Below, piece by piece: positions 1-6,926 of a DNA stretch of 64,000 bases. Both the position numbers and the translations under genes were made by a program. The DNA lies in assembly GCF_900101995.1 (NCBI RefSeq), contig NZ_FNAS01000001.1:124001-188000 (forward strand), written 5' to 3'. Numbering within the stretch: the first letter of the stretch is position 1; every line of letters begins with the position of its first letter. Origin of the DNA: Riemerella columbipharyngis. GTDB taxonomy: Bacteria; Bacteroidota; Bacteroidia; Flavobacteriales; Weeksellaceae. The notes under the pieces were generated by a model. The model searched no databases and was not told the DNA's origin. It saw only the letters and a list, made by a program, of their open reading frames with translations.

Positions 1-1
1 T

Positions 2-817
2 CCACCTAAATCTGGAGACCATAATGGAGACTGGAGTTGGTTGTTTAATGGTTTGTATCCTGGGTATGGACACTATATAGGAGGAGATTGTCTCAGGTAT
101 ATAAAATGTTTTGATCCTGTTAATGGATTTGATGGCGGAGGAGGAGGCTATTCTCCACTACCACCACTAAATGATAATAATGGTGATCCGTGTTCAGAGA
201 TGAAAAAAATGAATAATAGCTCAGCTTATTCAAAGAAAGTTGATGAGCTAAAAGAATCTTCTGTTCTTAGTAGAACTTACGAGACAGGATATAAAGAAAA
301 TAAAGATGGAACTTTTCATAGTCTTAGTCCTGCCAAATCTACTGCTAACTCTGACGGAATGAAAATTGATATAGATGCTGATACCAAAGGCTATATACAT
401 ACGCATATAGATGATTATGAAGTGGAGGACGCAAATGGAGATCTACAGATGAGGATGCCGATTAGAATGTTCTCGCCAGCCGATGTAAATGCCCTAATGG
501 AGATAGCAAAAATGCAAACGGACGGAAATTACGACGAAATATATGGGACGATGGTTTCCAGCGAAGGAATTTATACCATTAAATTTACAGGAACAAAATC
601 TGATATTAAAACTGGATTTAGTGGTAAAGAGTGGAGAGATAAATTCATATATTTTTGGAATAAACATAGTGGAAGTAATGAATTAAAATTTTTAAGATTT
701 TTAAAAGATGTTATGGGAATTGATGGAATATCCTTATATAAAACTGGGAAAGATGGTAAAATAGAAAATAAATTTTTAGAGAGTAACAATAGAGTAAAAT
801 CAAATGACTGTCCATAA
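2..817 (+). CDS. C-terminal part of a larger protein with a JAMM-like motif (5' truncated by window)
   Basis: The reading frame is open from base 2, so the true start lies outside the window; TTG at 41 is only an internal codon. The 271 visible residues begin with a Gly/Pro-rich linker (GFDGGGGGYSPLPPL) and end in a globular domain. In that domain, HTH at 398-406 followed by SPAD at 473-484 fits the H-x-H-x(n)-S-x-x-D metal site of JAMM/Mov34 peptidases. No matching upstream glutamate is proven. Such domains occur at the C-terminus of secreted polymorphic-toxin-like proteins in Bacteroidota (family knowledge); the missing N-terminus would be needed to say this. The stop overlaps only a leader frame of the next gene. 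Confidence 0.6.
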   Translation, partial: PPKSGDHNGDWSWLFNGLYPGYGHYIGGDCLRYIKCFDPVNGFDGGGGGYSPLPPLNDNNGDPCSEMKKMNNSSAYSKKVDELKESSVLSRTYETGYKENKDGTFHSLSPAKSTANSDGMKIDIDADTKGYIHTHIDDYEVEDANGDLQMRMPIRMFSPADVNALMEIAKMQTDGNYDEIYGTMVSSEGIYTIKFTGTKSDIKTGFSGKEWRDKFIYFWNKHSGSNELKFLRFLKDVMGIDGISLYKTGKDGKIENKFLESNNRVKSNDCP

Positions 818-836
818 TTTAAAAAAAAATAAAATA

Positions 837-1403
837 ATGAAAAAGATAATATTAGTATTCGCATTAATGATAATATGTAATATCAATGCCCAAAGAACAA
901 TATCATTAGCTCAGGCTTACGAATATTTTAAGTCGCCTAATGGAATACCAGAGGATGTATCCTATGTGAAGGATACTAATAATGACTTAAACAAATTTAT
1001 TGGTACCTGGAAAGGAAATTATGATGGGAAAACTTATATATTTAGGTTTATAAAAAAAATAAAAAGTGGGGAATATGATATAAAGTGGGATTATTTAGTA
1101 GGTAAGCTTAAAGTAACAGATAATAAAGGTAATATTCTTTATAATACATTTTCCTTAGACGATGATAAAACTTATTTTAGTGGAACATATCTACAACATC
1201 AATCTTATATTATGGATTTCATTGTAAATACTTATTGCAATGATTCTGGAGTTGTTTTTTTAAGGATATATGACAATCAACCTAATAAGATGAAAGTTTT
1301 ATTTGACAGAGATAGGACATGGTACGACCCTAAAAAATGTCCTAATTATGAGACTTACGAAACGACATTACCGCAGAAGTCTTTTGTTCTTACTAAGCAA
1401 TAA
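837..1403 (+). CDS. DUF6705-like exported protein, array copy 1
   Basis: A 188-residue protein with a Sec signal peptide (MKKIILVFALMIICNINAQ). I chose ATG 837 rather than the in-frame ATG 804 because the signal peptide starts there. The core carries the pattern YVKDTNNDLNKFIGTWKG followed by YDGKTY, which I recognise as the flavobacterial DUF6705 family (function unknown; probably a small lipocalin-like beta fold, inferred from the GTWKG motif). The last 55 or so residues, from YIMDFIVNTYC to FVLTKQ, are almost identical at DNA level to copies 4 and 5, while the middle is divergent. The gene lies 19 bp after the preceding partial gene and ends 48 bp before the next copy. Confidence 0.75.
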   Translation: MKKIILVFALMIICNINAQRTISLAQAYEYFKSPNGIPEDVSYVKDTNNDLNKFIGTWKGNYDGKTYIFRFIKKIKSGEYDIKWDYLVGKLKVTDNKGNILYNTFSLDDDKTYFSGTYLQHQSYIMDFIVNTYCNDSGVVFLRIYDNQPNKMKVLFDRDRTWYDPKKCPNYETYETTLPQKSFVLTKQ

Positions 1404-1409
1404 GAAACA

Positions 1410-1437
1410 AAAAGTCCGGTTACCCAGCCGGGCTTTT
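1410..1437 (+). terminator. array spacer hairpin 1
   Basis: Twelve-bp stem (AAAAGTCCGGTT with AGCCGGGCTTTT, two G-T wobbles), ACCC loop, four T then A-rich sequence. It starts 7 nt after the stop codon, as in every spacer of the array. Reads as a weak intrinsic terminator or an RNA-processing/stability hairpin. Confidence 0.6.
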
Positions 1438-1451
1438 AAAACTAAATAGAG

Positions 1452-2012
1452 ATGAAAAAGGTAATATTAATAACTACATTATTCGTAGCGTGTTTATGTA
1501 AGGCACAAACTTATACATTAAGAACGACAGGTGTAAAATTTCCTAAAGACAGCTATGTAAAGGATACTAACAACGAATTACCTGAATATGAAGGCACATG
1601 GAAAGGGACATGGGGCGGAAAAATGATTTACTTAACATTTAAAAAGATAAAATATTATAATTGGTTTTTAAACGATCGTGCCTACTACCGAGATATGTTA
1701 ATAGGGAAGTTTAAGGTATTAGATCAAAATAACAAAATACTATTTGATAATACTAATGTATCTGATAATGATGCAAGAATTAAAGGATTTGGATTTATGA
1801 AAACGGGAGGAAAGTATTTATTAGGGTATATTGATGAAGATATTTGTTATATGAATGGTCGCATTACTATTTATTTTACGGACAATACCAAAAAGAAACT
1901 TCAGTGGGATTTCTATGAAGGGGATAATCTCATTACACCGGATTGCAGGTATTATAAGGCAAAAGAATTTCCTCAGCCTTTACCAAAATCTATAGTTCTT
2001 ACTAAGCAATAA
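1452..2012 (+). CDS. DUF6705-like exported protein, array copy 2
   Basis: 186 residues with signal peptide MKKVILITTLFVACLCKAQ. It shares the YVKDTNNELPEYEGTWKGTW block with its neighbours but has a different second half (IYFTDNTKKKLQWDF, DCRYYKAKEFPQPLP) from copies 1, 4 and 5. The last 150 bp (1863-2012) are identical to the last 150 bp of copy 3 (2468-2617), and the signal-peptide DNA is nearly identical too; only the middle differs. This mosaic pattern points to gene conversion or a recent duplication with diversification of the core. Biochemical function unknown; expected location periplasm or outside. Confidence 0.75.
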   Translation: MKKVILITTLFVACLCKAQTYTLRTTGVKFPKDSYVKDTNNELPEYEGTWKGTWGGKMIYLTFKKIKYYNWFLNDRAYYRDMLIGKFKVLDQNNKILFDNTNVSDNDARIKGFGFMKTGGKYLLGYIDEDICYMNGRITIYFTDNTKKKLQWDFYEGDNLITPDCRYYKAKEFPQPLPKSIVLTKQ

Positions 2013-2018
2013 GAAACA

Positions 2019-2046
2019 AAAAGTCCGGTTACCCAGTCGGGCTTTT
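2019..2046 (+). terminator. array spacer hairpin 2
   Basis: Same hairpin as spacer 1 with one C-to-T change in the right arm that turns a C-G pair into a wobble, so the fold is kept. This spacer is 53 bp rather than 48 bp because of five extra bases (AAGAG) just before the next ATG. Confidence 0.6.
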
Positions 2047-2065
2047 AAAAATAAATAGAGAAGAG

Positions 2066-2617
2066 ATGAGAAAGGTAATATTAATAACTACATTATTCGT
2101 AGCGTGTTTATGCAAGGCACAAACCTATCCGTTGAGAACATTTACACAGTTACCTAATGGTGCTTATTTGAAAGATACTCAAAATGAATTATCTACATAC
2201 GAAGGCACATGGAAAGGTACTTGGGCAGAAAAAACGATTTACTTGACATTCAAGAAACAAACTAGATTTTATAATACAGTTTTAGGAATTTATAAAGACT
2301 TTTTAATAGCTAAATTTAAGGTCTTGGATAAAGACAATAAGATTCTATTTGATAATACCCATTTGTCAGATAAAGATGCTAAAATAGTAGGCGGTAAATT
2401 TAGAAAAAAAGATGGAAAATATTCTTTTAGTTATAGAGATGAAGATATTTGTGATATAAATGGTTATATTACTATTTATTTTACGGACAATACCAAAAAG
2501 AAACTTCAGTGGGATTTCTATGAAGGGGATAATCTCATTACACCGGATTGCAGGTATTATAAGGCAAAAGAATTTCCTCAGCCTTTACCAAAATCTATAG
2601 TTCTTACTAAGCAATAA
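2066..2617 (+). CDS. DUF6705-like exported protein, array copy 3
   Basis: 183 residues, signal peptide MRKVILITTLFVACLCKAQ, then YLKDTQNELSTYEGTWKGTW and a variable middle, then the same C-terminal block as copy 2 (identical over 150 bp). It is the closest paralogue of copy 2, with differences confined to residues of roughly 20-130. The family has no known function. Co-directional with the rest of the array, with no TAnnTTTG promoter in the spacer, so it probably depends on read-through from upstream. Confidence 0.75.
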   Translation: MRKVILITTLFVACLCKAQTYPLRTFTQLPNGAYLKDTQNELSTYEGTWKGTWAEKTIYLTFKKQTRFYNTVLGIYKDFLIAKFKVLDKDNKILFDNTHLSDKDAKIVGGKFRKKDGKYSFSYRDEDICDINGYITIYFTDNTKKKLQWDFYEGDNLITPDCRYYKAKEFPQPLPKSIVLTKQ

Positions 2618-2623
2618 GAAACA

Positions 2624-2651
2624 GAAAGTCCAGTTACCCAGCCGGGCTTTT
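2624..2651 (+). terminator. array spacer hairpin 3
   Basis: Same hairpin; one G-to-A change in the left arm (AAAGTCCAG) weakens one pair. Followed by TTTTAAAAATAAACGGATATG, the only spacer whose bases before the start codon differ (ACGGAT instead of ATAGAG). Confidence 0.55.
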
Positions 2652-2665
2652 AAAAATAAACGGAT

Positions 2666-3268
2666 ATGAAAAAGATAACATTAAGCTACTTACTAACGCT
2701 ATTTATAGCGAATATGGGAACTGCCCAAGAAAAAATAGGCACGCTAAGGCAGTTCGAAGAATGTGTGAGCAGATCTAATTATCAATCTGAGGGTTGTCCG
2801 GATTTAGAAAATATTACTTATATCAAAGATGTAGAGAATAGATTAGATAAATTTGTAGGAACTTGGACGGGAACTTATAACGGAAAAACTTATACTTTTA
2901 AATTTAATAAAAGAGTAAAGTATAGTGATGGAATGGGAAATAGAACCATAGATTTACTTTTTGGTAGAATAAAAGTTGAGGGAGCTAATGGAGAAATCCT
3001 TTATAATACTCTATCTGAAAGTAATGATAGTAATACTTATTTTTCCGGAGATAATTTTCAAAGAAATAGTTATATTATGGATTTCATTGTAAATACTTAT
3101 TGTAACGATACGGGTGTTGTTTTTTTAAGAATATATGACGATCAACCTAATAAGATGAAAGTTTTATTTGACAGAGATAGGACATGGTACGACCCTAAAA
3201 AATGCCCTAATTATGAGACTTACGAAACGACATTACCGCAGAAGTCTTTTGTTCTTACTAAGCAATAA
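2666..3268 (+). CDS. DUF6705-like exported protein, array copy 4
   Basis: 200 residues; signal peptide MKKITLSYLLTLFIANMGTAQ. Compared with copies 1-3 it has an insertion (QFEECVSRSNYQSEGCPDL) with two cysteines before the YIKDVENRLDKFVGTWTGTY block. The C-terminal 60 residues match copies 1 and 5. The two extra cysteines, together with YC and KCP later in the protein, could form disulfides in the periplasm (inference). Function unknown. Confidence 0.75.
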   Translation: MKKITLSYLLTLFIANMGTAQEKIGTLRQFEECVSRSNYQSEGCPDLENITYIKDVENRLDKFVGTWTGTYNGKTYTFKFNKRVKYSDGMGNRTIDLLFGRIKVEGANGEILYNTLSESNDSNTYFSGDNFQRNSYIMDFIVNTYCNDTGVVFLRIYDDQPNKMKVLFDRDRTWYDPKKCPNYETYETTLPQKSFVLTKQ

Positions 3269-3274
3269 GCAACG

Positions 3275-3302
3275 AAAAGTCCGGCTGCCCAGCCGAGCTT
3301 TT
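3275..3302 (+). terminator. array spacer hairpin 4
   Basis: Variant with the CCGGCTGCCCAGCCGA core: inner six pairs are perfect Watson-Crick, one outer C-A mismatch. The T-to-C and A-to-G changes near the loop relative to spacer 1 preserve the stem. Confidence 0.55.
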
Positions 3303-3316
3303 AAAAATAAATAGAG

Positions 3317-3922
3317 ATGAAAAAATTAATATTAAGCTACTTACTAATGCTATTTATAGCGAATATGGGAACTGCCCAAGAAAAAATAGGAACGCTAAGG
3401 CAGCTTGAAGAGTGTACTCATAGACCCAACCATCAGTCTGAGGGTTGTCCGGATTTAGATAATATCACTTATGTAAAAGATGTAGAGAATAGATTAGATA
3501 AGTTTGTAGGAACTTGGACGGGAACTTATAACGGAAAAACTTATACCTTTAAACTAAACAAGAGAGTTAAATTTGGATTTGGTCAAAGAAATGGGTTATA
3601 TTGGGATAGATTAATTGGCAGAATGAAAGTTCAAGGAGCTAATGGGGAAGTACTCTATAATACTCTATCCGAAAGTAACGATAGTAATACTTATTTTCAT
3701 GGGGATAATTTTCAAAGAAATAGTTATATTATGGATTTCATTGTAAATACTTATTGCAATGATTCTGGAGTTGTTTTTTTAAGGATATATGACAATCAAC
3801 CTAATAAGATGAAAGTTTTATTTGACAGAGATAGGACATGGTACGACCCTAAAAAATGCCCTAATTATGAGACTTACGAAACGACATTACCGCAGGTGTC
3901 ATTTGTTCTTACTAAGCAATAA
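3317..3922 (+). CDS. DUF6705-like exported protein, array copy 5
   Basis: 201 residues, signal peptide MKKLILSYLLMLFIANMGTAQ. N-terminal third is nearly the same as copy 4 (IGTLRQLEEC, EGCPDL, VENRLDKFVGTWTGTY), the middle (residues about 85-110) is divergent, and the C-terminal block is almost identical in DNA to copy 1 (a single difference over roughly 165 bp until the last codons). It therefore looks like a hybrid of copy 4-type 5' and copy 1-type 3' sequence. Function unknown; exported. Confidence 0.75.
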   Translation: MKKLILSYLLMLFIANMGTAQEKIGTLRQLEECTHRPNHQSEGCPDLDNITYVKDVENRLDKFVGTWTGTYNGKTYTFKLNKRVKFGFGQRNGLYWDRLIGRMKVQGANGEVLYNTLSESNDSNTYFHGDNFQRNSYIMDFIVNTYCNDSGVVFLRIYDNQPNKMKVLFDRDRTWYDPKKCPNYETYETTLPQVSFVLTKQ

Positions 3923-3928
3923 GAAACA

Positions 3929-3956
3929 AAAAGTCCGGTTACCCAGCCGGGTTTTT
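3929..3956 (+). terminator. array spacer hairpin 5
   Basis: Same hairpin with a C-to-T change in the right arm (GGGTTTTT) that replaces a G-C pair by a wobble and lengthens the T run to five. Confidence 0.6.
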
Positions 3957-3970
3957 AAAAATAAATAGAG

Positions 3971-4417
3971 ATGAAAAAATCATTAAAATTAGCAGTTTTA
4001 TCATTGTTTTTGGGAGTTCAGTTTTCATTTGCCCAGCAGGTTGTGGTTAATAAGCCGTCAGATACAAGGCTATTAGAAATTAATAAAAAAGAGTTTATAG
4101 GTAAACCTTTAGACTACTTATTGTCGGTCATTAAAGTACCAATAAAGTCTATTCAAGCCTATCCTAATAAAAACAAAAATGAAATCAATAGCTTAACATT
4201 TAGGTACATTACATATAAAGAATATCTTAAAACATGGGATAAAGAAATGAATGATAGACCTACTCAATTAGTTATTGAATTTAACCAAAATTGGAATTTT
4301 ATAGGTAAGAGGTGTTATCCTAATAAAAATCCTCAGTGTACAGAATGGCTGCCGGAAGATGAGAAAACTTTAGGGAATTTGATTGTTTATGATATTTATG
4401 TTTTGGGTAAAGACTAA
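3971..4417 (+). CDS. exported protein of unrecognised family, array copy 6
   Basis: 148 residues, signal peptide MKKSLKLAVLSLFLGVQFSFAQ. The mature part (KPSDTRLLEINKKEFIGKPL, then TQLVIEFNQNWNFIGKRC, then EWLPEDEKTLG) does not resemble DUF6705 and I do not recognise it. It shares with the DUF6705 copies only the signal-peptide style and the flanking 48-bp spacers. Two cysteines (RC and QC) are conserved in the following paralogue. No domain or active-site motif can be named. Confidence 0.7.
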   Translation: MKKSLKLAVLSLFLGVQFSFAQQVVVNKPSDTRLLEINKKEFIGKPLDYLLSVIKVPIKSIQAYPNKNKNEINSLTFRYITYKEYLKTWDKEMNDRPTQLVIEFNQNWNFIGKRCYPNKNPQCTEWLPEDEKTLGNLIVYDIYVLGKD

Positions 4418-4423
4418 TGCGAT

Positions 4424-4451
4424 AAAAGTCCGGTTACCCAGCCGGACTTTC
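4424..4451 (+). terminator. array spacer hairpin 6
   Basis: Same hairpin; right arm CCGGACTTT gives a Watson-Crick A-T pair where the others have a wobble, a compensatory-type change that supports selection on structure. Confidence 0.6.
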
Positions 4452-4465
4452 AAAACTAAATAGAG

Positions 4466-4915
4466 ATGAGAAAGTCATTAAAATTAGCAGTTTTATCATT
4501 GTTTTTGGGGATTCAGTTTTCGTGTGCCCAGCAGATTGTAATTAACAAGCCGTCAGATACAAGGCTGTTAGAAGTTAATAAAAAAGAATTTATAGGGAAA
4601 CCATTGAGTTATTTATTATCGGTTATTAAAGTACCTATAAAGTCAGTACTAGCTGTTCCTAATAAAAATAAGAATGAAATTAATATGCTATATTTTAGAT
4701 ATATTACTTATGATGAATATCGCAGAGTATGGACTAAAAGTAGTATTGAAGAAGGTCCTACTCAATTAGTTGTTAAATTTAATCAAAATTGGAATATGGA
4801 GGGGAAGTTGTGCAAACCTATAGAAAATCCCCAGTGTGCAGAATGGCTGCCGGAAGATGAGAAAAATTTAGGAGGTTTAATCGTATATGATATTTATGTA
4901 CGGGGTAAAGACTAA
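4466..4915 (+). CDS. exported protein of unrecognised family, array copy 7
   Basis: 149 residues, signal peptide MRKSLKLAVLSLFLGIQFSCAQ, which contains a Cys that could mimic a lipobox but is followed by AQ as in the non-lipoprotein paralogue. It is a clear paralogue of the preceding gene (INKPSDTRLLEVNKKEF, LLSVIKVPIKSV, EWLPEDEKNLGGLIVYDIYV), with most differences in the middle (residues about 70-95). Function unknown. Confidence 0.7.
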   Translation: MRKSLKLAVLSLFLGIQFSCAQQIVINKPSDTRLLEVNKKEFIGKPLSYLLSVIKVPIKSVLAVPNKNKNEINMLYFRYITYDEYRRVWTKSSIEEGPTQLVVKFNQNWNMEGKLCKPIENPQCAEWLPEDEKNLGGLIVYDIYVRGKD

Positions 4916-4921
4916 TACGAT

Positions 4922-4949
4922 AAAAGTCCGGCTGCCCAGTCGGGCTTTT
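4922..4949 (+). terminator. array spacer hairpin 7
   Basis: Same hairpin with the CTGCCCAG centre and a T in the right arm; followed by TTTTAATACTAAATAGAG and the ATG of an aborted reading frame. Confidence 0.6.
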
Positions 4950-4963
4950 AATACTAAATAGAG

Positions 4964-5038
4964 ATGAGAAAGGTAATACTAAGTGCTTCGTACCTTTTCA
5001 GTATTTTAGGCAAAAAGCATATGAAAGATTTATTTTGA
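4964..5038 (+). pseudogene. aborted eighth array gene (24-codon signal-peptide remnant)
   Basis: After the usual 48-bp spacer an ATG opens a frame (MRKVILSASYLFSILGKK) that starts like the signal peptides of copies 2 and 3 but stops after 24 codons. No mature domain follows; ten bases later a perfect 30-bp inverted repeat begins. This looks like a copy whose body was lost by deletion or replaced when the downstream segment arrived. Confidence 0.6.
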
Positions 5039-5047
5039 TAGCTTAGC

Positions 5048-5110
5048 TATTTTGTGATTATAAAAAGTTCCCACGCCGCAGGCGTGGGAACTTTTTATAA
5101 TCACAAAATA
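5048..5110. terminator. perfect 30-bp inverted repeat, bidirectional terminator
   Basis: Left arm 5048-5077 and right arm 5081-5110 are exact reverse complements, with a 3-nt loop (GCA). The core GTTCCCACGCC is GC-rich and flanked by AAAAA/TTTTT, so it terminates in both directions between the plus-strand array and the minus-strand gene ending at 5114. Its length and perfection exceed what termination needs; it could also be a small palindromic mobile unit. Confidence 0.8.
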
Positions 5111-5113
5111 CAC

Positions 5114-6097
5114 CTACTCATAGTAGGCAATCTCACGCTCTATGACGATTTTGGCTTTTCCGTCTTGATAGATTATTGTCTTAATCCAATTACCATGGGT
5201 GTCGTATTCGTAGGTATAAGTATTTTTCAAAGTTAAACCGCTCTCTAAGTTATAACTAACCCACTCTATCTCATTCCCTTTATCATCATACGCAAAAGTT
5301 TTTTTCCAATCTAAACTGCCATCTGAGTTATACCTAACCGTCTCTATCTGATTCCCTTTATCATCATACGCATAAGTCTCTTTCCAATCTAAACTGCCAT
5401 CTGAGTTATAACTAACCCACTCTATCTGATTCCCTTTATCATCATACGCAAAAGTGTTTTTCCAATCTAAACTGCCATCTGAGTTATAACTAACCTCCTC
5501 TATCTGATTCCCTTTATCATCATACGCAAAAGTGTTTTTCCAATCTAAACTGCCATCTGAGTTATAACTAACCCACTCTATCTGATTCCCTTTATCATCA
5601 TACGCAAAAGTGTTTTTCCAATCTAAACTGCCATCTGAGTTATAACTAACCCACTCTATCTGATTCCCTTTATCATCATACGCAAAAGTGTTTTTCCAAT
5701 CTAAACTGCCATCTGCGTTATAACTAACCTCCTCTATCTGATTCCCTTTATCATCATACGCAAAAGTGTTTTTCGAATCTAAACTGCCATCTGCGTTATA
5801 CCTAACCTCCTCTATCTGATTCCCTTTATCATCATACGCAAAAGTGTTTTTCGAATCTAAACTGCCATCTGCGTTATACCTAACCTCCTCTATCAAATTC
5901 CCTTTTTCATTAAAAACAGCATAAGAATTATCATCATTTCCACCTGTTTTTCTCCCTCTTTCTACTTTTCCAAATTTCTCTACGGCTTCATAAGATATCT
6001 GCCTTACGGATTTTACTTTTCCTTTCAAACCTGTTTCTTCTGCATCGGTTTTCTTGTGTTGTTTATCACACGCCCAAAGGCTTAATGCACTAAGCAT
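5114..6097 (-). CDS. lipoprotein of 26-residue RHS/YD-like repeats
   Basis: From ATG 6097 the protein has 327 residues, but this gives a signal lacking a basic N-terminus (MLSALSLWAC, with lipobox LWAC). Seven codons upstream at 6118 the frame reads ATA-AAA-CAA, so a more normal signal KQTILVMLSALSLWAC would exist if ATA (perhaps a mutated ATG) were the start. Residues 66-273 are eight 26-residue units of the form GNQIEEVSYNADGSLDWKNT plus FAYDDK, then a degenerate ninth and a unique C-terminus. The units resemble Bacteroidota YD/RHS-type beta-strand repeats. Probably a surface or periplasmic lipoprotein; function unknown. Confidence 0.7.
   Translation of the reverse strand: MLSALSLWACDKQHKKTDAEETGLKGKVKSVRQISYEAVEKFGKVERGRKTGGNDDNSYAVFNEKGNLIEEVRYNADGSLDSKNTFAYDDKGNQIEEVRYNADGSLDSKNTFAYDDKGNQIEEVSYNADGSLDWKNTFAYDDKGNQIEWVSYNSDGSLDWKNTFAYDDKGNQIEWVSYNSDGSLDWKNTFAYDDKGNQIEEVSYNSDGSLDWKNTFAYDDKGNQIEWVSYNSDGSLDWKETYAYDDKGNQIETVRYNSDGSLDWKKTFAYDDKGNEIEWVSYNLESGLTLKNTYTYEYDTHGNWIKTIIYQDGKAKIVIEREIAYYE
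5279..5902 (-). repeat. eight 78-bp tandem repeats inside the repeat lipoprotein gene
   Basis: Eight in-frame 78-bp units (26 codons) with few differences; units differ mainly at EE/EW/ET, S/R and A/S positions. Neighbouring units are nearly identical in DNA, so copy number can change by slippage or unequal crossing-over without breaking the frame. Confidence 0.9.
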
Positions 6098-6145
6098 AAC
6101 TAAAATTGTTTGTTTTATTTCTATTGAGTTTTTAAATGTTTTATA

Positions 6146-6425
6146 TTTTCATCAAAATTTTTAGATGAATTACCCAAATTTTTAGGCAGACCTACCAAAA
6201 TTTTTATTGATTTATTGAAAACTTTGCAACAACTACCTGAATTTTTAAGCTCTATATCCAAATTTTTGGCTTAAGTATCGAAATTTTTGGGTGCCATAGG
6301 CAAAATTTTAGGCTTAGGGGCTAAAATTTTCGCTGCCAAGGCTAAAAATTTCATTGTTTTAGGCAAATCTTTCATCGAGATAGCCAAAAGTTGGGGCATT
6401 TTGCCCCAACTTTTGGCTACCATAG
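6146..6425. repeat. about thirteen degenerate 21-bp repeats with phased A-tracts
   Basis: This intergenic stretch of over 300 bases contains no convincing gene. A motif like CCAAATTTTTGGCT recurs every 21 bp, near 6151, 6172, 6193, 6214, 6236, 6256, 6277, 6298, 6319, 6340, 6361, 6382 and 6403. The period is two helical turns and seven codons; read on the plus strand the last units give heptads such as AKIFAAK, AKNFIVL, GKSFIEI. The final two units form a perfect 17-bp inverted repeat. Confidence 0.75.
6381..6419. repeat. 17-bp perfect inverted repeat (hairpin)
   Basis: Arms 6381-6397 (TAGCCAAAAGTTGGGGC) and 6403-6419 are exact reverse complements around ATTTT. It lies 15 bp past the stop of the minus-strand gene ending at 6435, so it may end that transcript, although no long T run follows on the minus strand. 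Confidence 0.65.
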
Positions 6426-6434
6426 CTTTACGCT

Positions 6435-6926
6435 TTATTCAGAAGGCGTATTTTGTGGGTCTTCTGCTTTTTTCTTTTTAGAACGCGGAAAGAATTGCGA
6501 CAGTTCCTGTGCCATGCTCGTAGTACCCGGCGCATTCTCGCCACTGAGGTAGCGAATATTGCGGTAGAAAGTGAGTGCGGCAGTGTAGTTGTCGTTATCC
6601 AAAAGGATTTTGGTATCAGAGAGTTGCTCGGTGATGCTTTCCAGGCGCAAGAGGCGTTTTTCTATCACCTCGCGTGTGGCGTAATCTTTGTCAAACTCCG
6701 CTTTGTCCACAAAAGGCGGCACATAGTCTGGGTACTGCTCCATTAGGGTTTTGCTTTTTTGCACAAAGAGCTTGTTTTGCTCGGCAATTCTACCAAATTG
6801 TTTACGCTCTTCGGGCGTAAGGTTGCGGGTTTTGCCTTTCAACGCCTCTTCCACCGCTGCCAGGGCATCGTCTATTTTCTTTAAATCCTCGGCAGAAAAT
6901 TCAAGGCTTAATAAATCTTTGTTCAT
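6435..6926 (-). CDS. conserved protein of unknown function (163 aa)
   Basis: A soluble, mostly helical, charged protein: MNKDLLSLEFSAEDLKKIDDA at the N-terminus, a central PEERKQFGRIAEQ and YPDYVPPFVD, and a basic tail (PRSKKKKAEDP). I recall similar 150-170 residue proteins in many Bacteroidota genomes, none with an assigned role. There is no signal peptide or membrane segment. It sits directly beside the 21-bp repeat tract; a functional link is only a guess. Confidence 0.65.
   Translation of the reverse strand: MNKDLLSLEFSAEDLKKIDDALAAVEEALKGKTRNLTPEERKQFGRIAEQNKLFVQKSKTLMEQYPDYVPPFVDKAEFDKDYATREVIEKRLLRLESITEQLSDTKILLDNDNYTAALTFYRNIRYLSGENAPGTTSMAQELSQFFPRSKKKKAEDPQNTPSE

What the first reader, a model, noticed from the sequence alone, without database searches (positions are those of the whole stretch)
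837..5038. Head-to-tail array of exported small proteins joined by near-identical hairpin spacers
Seven genes of two unrelated families plus an aborted eighth lie in one direction. Each is followed at a fixed distance by the same hairpin, with spacers of 48 bp (one is 53 bp). Unrelated genes sharing the same spacer means the spacer, not the gene, is the unit of homology. This is cassette-like, but without integron core sites. Recombination between spacers could add, delete or swap cassettes.
Basis: partly seen in the sequence, partly recalled or inferred. Interest (0 to 1): 0.75.

Follow-up and report, generated by a model that had tools for sequence, protein, structure and literature searches.

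The report
Toxin gene with immunity-gene array
In a Riemerella bacterium, a lipoprotein that looks like a weapon against other bacteria is followed by seven small proteins that look like antidotes, each ending in its own hairpin; the same arrangement recurs in related bacteria and suggests a job for a protein family of unknown function.

Summary
In detail: seven co-directional ORFs of two unrelated families, an aborted eighth, and seven near-identical hairpin spacers of 48 bp (one 53). Five genes are DUF6705 (PF20448; g2 models as a lipocalin-like barrel), two a second family. In 44 loci, window included, 51 JAMM-type domains sit directly before such a gene. Domain and neighbour co-vary (rho 0.79; 0 of 2000 permutations); the lipoprotein's N-terminus and the neighbour do not (rho 0.10). 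This is most likely a polymorphic toxin with cognate and orphan immunity genes. The spacer occurs nowhere else in its genome, so it is not a dispersed cassette site. Spacers are alike within a genome and differ between genomes, and within each DUF6705 class the homology runs into gene ends (3'-end dS 0.00-0.08, core 0.70-1.48), pointing to ordinary recombination or gene conversion. One whole-unit difference is seen between two relatives. New variant of a known kind; toxicity untested.

The parts
1..817 (+). 3' part of a 480-aa lipoprotein gene (starts upstream, L008:11376); residues from 271 on (window 185-814) form a JAMM-like C-terminal domain, putative toxin
837..1403 (+). g1, DUF6705 protein; putative cognate immunity protein of the upstream toxin
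   Evidence: best match outside the window is the immunity gene beside the most similar toxin domain
1404..1451 (.). 48-bp spacer S1 with hairpin
1452..2012 (+). g2, DUF6705; putative orphan immunity (closest to the immunity gene beside the G001/G002 toxin class, 70%)
   Evidence: predicted lipocalin-like barrel
2013..2065 (.). 53-bp spacer S2 with hairpin
2066..2617 (+). g3, DUF6705; putative orphan immunity, same class as g2
2618..2665 (.). 48-bp spacer S3 with hairpin
2666..3268 (+). g4, DUF6705; putative orphan immunity (long-insert JAMM class)
3269..3316 (.). 48-bp spacer S4 with hairpin
3317..3922 (+). g5, DUF6705; putative orphan immunity (long-insert JAMM class)
3923..3970 (.). 48-bp spacer S5 with hairpin, between the two unrelated families
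3971..4417 (+). g6, second immunity-like family (4 relatives lie directly after JAMM domains)
4418..4465 (.). 48-bp spacer S6 with hairpin
4466..4915 (+). g7, second immunity-like family
4916..4963 (.). 48-bp spacer S7 with hairpin
4964..5038 (+). aborted eighth unit: DUF6705-like start (MRKVIL...), 24 codons

Best explanation
The locus is a polymorphic toxin-immunity island. A lipoprotein with a constant N-terminal region and a Gly/Pro-rich linker carries an exchangeable C-terminal JAMM (zinc metalloprotease-like) toxin domain. The gene directly downstream (DUF6705 here, the second family in some relatives) is its exported immunity protein; the further genes are immunity proteins kept or duplicated against other JAMM toxin classes. 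Inferred working: the lipoprotein reaches the outer membrane or surface and attacks related neighbours in the cell envelope, and the exported immunity proteins bind the JAMM domain there. Each immunity gene ends in a hairpin just past its stop, most likely a 3' RNA element (weak termination or 3'-end protection). The array grows, shrinks and is homogenised by ordinary homologous recombination or gene conversion through shared gene ends plus spacer. Shown: architecture, co-variation, JAMM motif, hairpin position, homogenised ends within DUF6705 classes, one whole-unit difference. Inferred: toxicity, neutralisation, delivery, hairpin function.
For: Upstream lipoprotein with lipobox (by eye). E33, H72, H74, S97, D100 invariant in 37 of 37 aligned domains (37 of the 50 distinct domains were given; HxH/S/D had been used to pick them, E not). 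AlphaFold model from 3 sequences, pLDDT 73.5: the 50 rows shown of the VIA re-alignment are JAMM/MPN chains by title or by recalled chain identity (EMC, proteasome lid, spliceosome); best AMSH Z 7.4, rmsd 3.9, 131 aligned. 51 JAMM-to-immunity adjacencies (47 DUF6705, 4 second family) in 44 loci; pattern in 7 of 372 other ORFs. Domain-immunity rho 0.79, 0 of 2000 permutations; 0.85 against 0.10 for N-terminus-immunity in the 32 with an N-terminus; nearest neighbours agree in 26 of 51 (1000 permutations: mean 1.1, maximum 7). Array genes match immunity genes of three JAMM classes. G003: a displaced 117-nt toxin tail (90.6% identical) before an interrupted immunity-type start; orphan domain-immunity pairs in L068, L069, L071. 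Hairpin at or below -10 kcal/mol: Riemerella internal genes 11 of 11, last or isolated 7 of 9; elsewhere 26 of 51 internal and 34% of 64 last or isolated; random 45-mers 5-6%. 3'-end dS 0.00-0.08, core 0.70-1.48 in g1/g4, g1/g5, g2/g3, g4/g5.
Against: No toxicity, binding or export was tested. The JAMM Z of 7.4 is middling; Foldseek gave no match at E<=0.001, its top rows being other folds. The sequence profile's best PDB hits, Prp8, are at E 0.28; Prok-JAB matched 1 of 37 members. Toxin genes of G001 and G003 have an in-frame stop in the N-terminal part, and G004's has no standard start ahead of its signal-like stretch, so several may be inactive. The homogenised-end pattern is not general: g1/g2 (different classes) and g6/g7 in the window lack it (g6/g7 core dS 0.79, 3' end 0.65), and over 95 comparable pairs 3'-end dS is below core dS in only 60. 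The window's hairpins do not pass the + strand intrinsic-terminator scan. Loci were chosen for DUF6705 clusters, not at random.
Confidence: 0.8

Rival explanations
1. Surface protease with dedicated inhibitors: the JAMM lipoprotein is a housekeeping or host-interaction enzyme and the small proteins are its regulators, not antidotes against rivals.
For: JAMM proteins are often peptidases (recalled); lipoprotein and small proteins both look exported (by eye); no delivery machine was identified, and VipB of the type VI system is not found in 6 of 6 genus genomes.
Against: Exchangeable domains with a co-varying neighbour and an N-terminus that varies independently; displaced domain-immunity pairs and a toxin-tail remnant; most array members match partners of toxin classes or variants other than the one in the window; no DUF6705 in G005.
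Confidence: 0.12
2. Integron-like or rAID-like cassette system: the hairpin spacer is a recognition site for a recombinase that inserts and swaps genes.
For: Unrelated genes share the spacer in two genomes (G000, G004); rAID arrays of Bacteroidales are described with conserved intergenic motifs (passages of PMC12247911).
Against: The spacer is found only in this array; none of 9 recombinase matches of the genome is on the array's contig; homology runs into gene ends; spacer sequence differs between genomes.
Confidence: 0.1
3. Simple tandem duplication of one gene plus spacer, with no toxin connection.
For: Five DUF6705 paralogs in tandem and two of the second family, near-constant spacing.
Against: Does not explain why two unrelated families share the spacer or why spacers group by genome, nor the toxin pairing.
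Confidence: 0.05

Closest known systems
Polymorphic toxin systems and polyimmunity loci (Zhang et al. 2012, PMC3482391; passages seen)
   Same: Variable C-terminal toxin domain, immunity gene directly downstream, tandem immunity genes, standalone toxin cassettes
   Different: No Pfam family at cut-off covers the lipoproteins scanned; DUF6705 is a Pfam family of unknown function; the array stays attached to a toxin gene
Tox-JAB-1 / Imm65 (PF15659; same paper, passages)
   Same: JAB/JAMM-type domain in Bacteroidetes with an immunity protein that has signal peptide and lipobox
   Different: Tox-JAB-1 is described with N-terminal RHS repeats; PF15659 finds nothing in 6 of 6 genus genomes and profiles do not align (hhalign probability 0.6%)
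SitA/SitI lipoprotein toxins of myxobacteria (PMC5562445; passages seen)
   Same: Polymorphic lipoprotein toxin with C-terminal toxin domain and adjacent immunity gene
   Different: Different phylum; sequences not compared; delivery by outer membrane exchange not tested here
rAID arrays of Bacteroidales (PMC12247911; passages seen)
   Same: Co-oriented short immunity genes with conserved intergenic sequence
   Different: No tyrosine recombinase match on the array's contig; no VipB match in the genus; the array follows its own toxin gene
Vibrio cholerae immunity arrays by effector displacement (PMC5361080; passages seen)
   Same: Immunity genes retained in an array 3' of the current effector
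   Different: That paper argues against duplication; here duplicated and homogenised paralogs are present as well

Membership tests
Polymorphic toxin system | Constant N-terminal part joined to exchangeable C-terminal domain | tested here: met
   N-terminus vs C-terminal domain similarity rho 0.10 over 32 proteins; alignment A1 of 5 Riemerella proteins, 3 of them entered without their first residues
Polymorphic toxin system | Immunity gene directly downstream that co-varies with the toxin domain | tested here: met
   51 adjacencies; rho 0.79, 0 of 2000 permutations
Polymorphic toxin system | Displaced toxin tails or orphan domain-immunity pairs | tested here: met
   In relatives: L028 117-nt tail, L068/L069/L071 orphan pairs; none found in the window
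Polymorphic toxin system | Toxicity neutralised by the immunity protein | not testable with these tools
   Needs expression experiments
JAMM/MPN superfamily | Zn-site signature E ... HxH ... SxxD | tested here: met
   Invariant in 37 of 37; HxH/S/D used for selection, E not
JAMM/MPN superfamily | JAMM/MPN fold | tested here: inconclusive
   The 50 rows shown by VIA are of the superfamily (part by recalled chain identity) but Z is at most 7.4; Foldseek none at E<=0.001; Prok-JAB 1 of 37
Tox-JAB-1 (PF15659) | Match to the family model | tested here: not met
   0 of 6 genus genomes incl. own, while 10 of all 120 genomes searched match; hhalign probability 0.6%
Tox-JAB-1 (PF15659) | N-terminal RHS repeats | tested here: not met
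   Full lipoprotein has no RHS match at E<=1 in Pfam
rAID system | Co-oriented array of short immunity-type genes with conserved intergenic sequence | tested here: met
rAID system | Linked tyrosine recombinase | tested here: not met
   0 of 9 PF00589 matches of G000 on contig C28; in G001 and G002 the best-scoring PF00589 match lies about 8.5 kb from the array
Integron cassette array | Linked integrase | tested here: not met
   No PF00589 match on the contig
Integron cassette array | attC sites | not tested
   No attC model was run
SitA-type lipoprotein toxin | Lipobox, toxin domain, adjacent immunity gene | tested here: met
   By sequence reading
SitA-type lipoprotein toxin | Homology to SitA and TraA-dependent exchange | not tested
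   No SitA or TraA sequence was compared

The most novel reading that the evidence does not exclude
The array is a built-in diversification device. Recombination keeps the secretion signal, 3' end, hairpin and ribosome site of units interchangeable, while the toxin-binding core is left free to diverge, so that new antidote cores, even of unrelated folds, can be slotted into a standard frame; the hairpin doubles as transcript end and homology handle. The toxin would be an envelope-acting JAMM peptidase, whereas JAB toxins were proposed to be nucleases (PMC3482391).
Probability: 0.2. Interest if true: 0.72.

Novelty: new variant of a known kind. Interest (0 to 1): 0.56.

Why it matters
It gives a testable function to DUF6705 (PF20448), found in 158 of 296 genomes drawn from the family and named in none of the papers held, and to a second unnamed family, and it links both to a JAMM-type domain with no Pfam match over cut-off in the lipoproteins scanned whole. 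Antidotes that look exported and a lipoprotein toxin put the presumed target in the cell envelope, which speaks for a peptidase rather than the nuclease role suggested for JAB toxins in PMC3482391. The arrays also show, by silent-site divergence, how immunity genes can be renewed by recombination at their ends.

Tried and rejected
Mobile cassette or dispersed repeat: rejected, the spacer has no copy elsewhere in the genome. Integron or rAID: no recombinase match on the contig. Type VI link: VipB not found in 6 of 6 genus genomes; subtype iii sheath proteins might escape this model. Tox-JAB-1: model and profile comparison negative (one search read loci on the wrong strand and was redone; one search found one locus only). 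Empty-site comparison: the flanking genes are not adjacent in the relatives, so none could be defined. Companion 164-aa gene: copies 83-100% identical to the G002 query lie beside the arrays of G001-G004, but G005 has one (82%) without an array and G000's is distant (35%), so it is not essential. Bacteroidota-type promoters (recalled consensus): none in window 1-6500; matches in L008 are far from the toxin gene. Sigma-70 scan: 13 sites against 31 expected by chance. Positive selection: in the core dN is below dS in the window pairs listed. Foldseek: no E<=0.001 for either model. NCBIfam: nothing over cut-off for the toxin or the immunity genes tried. PDB profile of the second family: best E 0.04, a retinol-binding protein, not significant. 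Genome-contig scan: two Riemerella loci only. Pfam: no family over cut-off for the full lipoproteins.
Full report
OBSERVATION. Spacer identity is far above shuffled copies (0.70-0.96 against a mean of 0.47 and a maximum of 0.61). In the whole genome (2.14 Mb, 41 contigs) the hairpin with up to three mismatches occurs seven times, all here.

WHAT LIES IN FRONT. Nineteen bases before the first gene ends a 480-aa lipoprotein gene that begins 626 bp outside the window. Five Riemerella proteins, three of them entered without their first residues because of a stop or missing standard start, align along the N-terminal region, a Gly/Pro-rich linker and a C-terminal domain with invariant E303, H342, H344, S367 and D370.

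THE SAME LOCUS ELSEWHERE. In the genus, 5 of 6 genomes have DUF6705. The six arrays read in these five genomes lie 3' of such a lipoprotein gene, at four different chromosomal sites. In genomes drawn from the family 158 of 296 have DUF6705; from the order 44 of 296, the two draws overlapping. I read 44 loci from 42 genomes, window included; the 38 outside the genus were chosen by me from the listed hits, mostly for clusters, so the set is not random. In them 47 DUF6705 genes and 4 genes of the second family lie directly after an ORF with the pattern HxH...SxxD in its last 260 residues. Of the other DUF6705 genes 53 follow another array gene, 11 have no same-strand neighbour within 300 bp, and 11 follow some other ORF, of which eight, by eye, have the same kind of tail. 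Among 372 other ORFs the pattern occurs in 7.

TOXIN-IMMUNITY TEST. If these are toxin and antidote, the toxin domain and its neighbour must co-vary while the carrier part need not. Over 51 pairs from 37 genomes, comparing different genomes only, domain-neighbour similarity has rho 0.79 (0 of 2000 permutations as high, permutation maximum 0.39). In the 32 with an N-terminus it is 0.85, against 0.10 for N-terminus-neighbour. The nearest relative of domain and neighbour is the same pair in 26 of 51 (1000 permutations: mean 1.1, maximum 7). Near-identical pairs (L025/L026, L027/L028) were not removed; the low N-terminal value shows that relatedness of species is not the cause. By the same comparison g1, g4 and g5 match antidotes of the long-insert class of the own toxin, g2 and g3 those of the G001/G002 class (70% and 58% identity), and g6 and g7 the one in L069 (47%). 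The array would cover three toxin classes, one of which has its toxin here.

FOLDS. The JAMM domain was modelled from three sequences (pLDDT 73.5). The 50 rows shown of the structural re-alignment of Foldseek's top 1000 belong to the JAMM/MPN superfamily, by title or by recalled chain identity (AMSH Z 7.4, rmsd 3.9 over 131 residues). Z is middling, and Foldseek's own ranking shows other folds with none at E<=0.001. The sequence profile's best PDB hits are Prp8 at E 0.28, not significant, and Prok-JAB matches 1 of 37 members. With the metal-site residues invariant in 37 of 37 (37 of the 50 distinct domains were given) I take the assignment as likely. DUF6705 g2 models as a small beta-barrel (pLDDT 82.5) like Tp0751 (Z 9.6, rmsd 3.0 over 96 residues) and designed or avidin-like barrels. 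Acidic residues follow the presumed lipid-bearing Cys in 22 of 27 toxins where a rule picked one; 5 more had none picked, some picks look wrong, and the window's own protein was not in this set. Bacteroidota surface lipoproteins carry an N-terminal export signal (passages of PMC11885536); that these residues form one is recalled, not tested.

THE SPACERS. Hairpins directly after the stop are a wider trait: at or below -10 kcal/mol in 11 of 11 internal and 7 of 9 last or isolated genes of Riemerella, in 26 of 51 internal and 34% of 64 last or isolated genes elsewhere, and in 5-6% of random 45-mers. Their sequence is particular to each genome: 18 Riemerella spacers average 0.83 within a genome and family (19 pairs), 0.76 within a genome across unrelated families (13), 0.61 between genomes within a family (69) and 0.57 between genomes across families (52). 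L027 was left out of that count as a near copy of L028. In the window the shared block is wider than the spacer: the last 45 codons have dS 0.00-0.08 in g1/g4, g1/g5, g2/g3 and g4/g5, while their cores have dS 0.70-1.48. g1/g2, of different classes, has no such end; g6/g7 does not show it either (core 0.79, 3' end 0.65); five other window pairs fell below the identity filter. G001 and G002 show the pattern (3' end 0.08-0.16, core 0.41-0.61). Of 130 pairs 95 passed the filter; 3'-end dS is lower than core dS in 60 of them and 3'-end identity higher in 77; 14 of 32 arrays have ends at least 10 points more alike than cores. So the effect is strong in DUF6705 of Riemerella and mixed elsewhere. Such differences at silent sites call for recombination, not selection alone. 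G001 and G002 share one site; G001 has two units and G002 three with the same spacers, the extra one interrupted near its start by an insertion sequence. In G003 a 117-nt copy of the toxin's end (90.6% identical) lies after the first immunity gene, in front of an interrupted immunity-type start, as expected if toxin tails are displaced.

HOW IT LIKELY WORKS. Shown: arrangement, co-variation, conserved metal-site residues, hairpins, homogenised ends, one unit difference. Inferred: the lipoprotein poisons neighbours in the envelope, the exported small proteins protect, the orphans protect against rivals' toxins, the hairpins act in RNA as weak terminators or 3' protectors. They do not pass the terminator scan on the + strand, and no Bacteroidota-type promoter pattern was seen in the array, so read-through along the array is likely.

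KNOWN KINDS. The logic is that of polymorphic toxins and polyimmunity loci (PMC3482391, passages), and the lipoprotein form recalls SitA (PMC5562445, passages). A Bacteroidetes polymorphic toxin class with a TANFOR domain (PMC7073777, passages) differs: its main text holds neither 'JAB' nor 'lipoprotein'. Tox-JAB-1/Imm65 is the nearest named pair but membership fails. rAID arrays share co-orientation and conserved intergenic sequence (PMC12247911, passages) but no recombinase match lies on this contig. Effector displacement building immunity arrays is described for V. cholerae (PMC5361080, passages). No held paper has the word DUF6705. The other searches were seen as listings, some of them the top rows of longer lists; none of the titles or abstract starts shown describes this locus, and most subscription papers are not held.

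Noticed in passing
window 5048-5110: Perfect 30-bp inverted repeat with a 3-base loop between the array and the convergent next gene; looks like a two-way terminator.
   Followed up: no
window 5114-6097 (-): Lipoprotein-like 327-aa protein made of 26-residue YD-like repeats (nine overlapping 300-nt matches at 78-bp steps, 61-93% identical to the reference).
   Followed up: no
window 6435-6926 (-); G001-G005: About 164-aa protein family of unknown function; copies 83-100% identical lie beside the toxin arrays of G001-G004, and G005 has one without an array.
   Followed up: partly
window about 6130-6370: Degenerate short AAAATTTT/TTTTTAGG-type repeats between two genes, seen by eye.
   Followed up: no
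L025, L028, L029: Toxin genes of G001 and G003 carry an in-frame stop in the N-terminal part and G004's lacks a standard start ahead of its signal-like stretch, while most immunity genes downstream stay open.
   Followed up: partly
L062-L065, L101: A small regulator that looks like the XRE type (by eye) lies on the opposite strand just upstream of the toxin gene in several loci of other genera.
   Followed up: no
L026, L027, L028: Nearly the same IS (DDE transposase) sits at the starts of immunity-type genes in different arrays of G002 and G003.
   Followed up: partly
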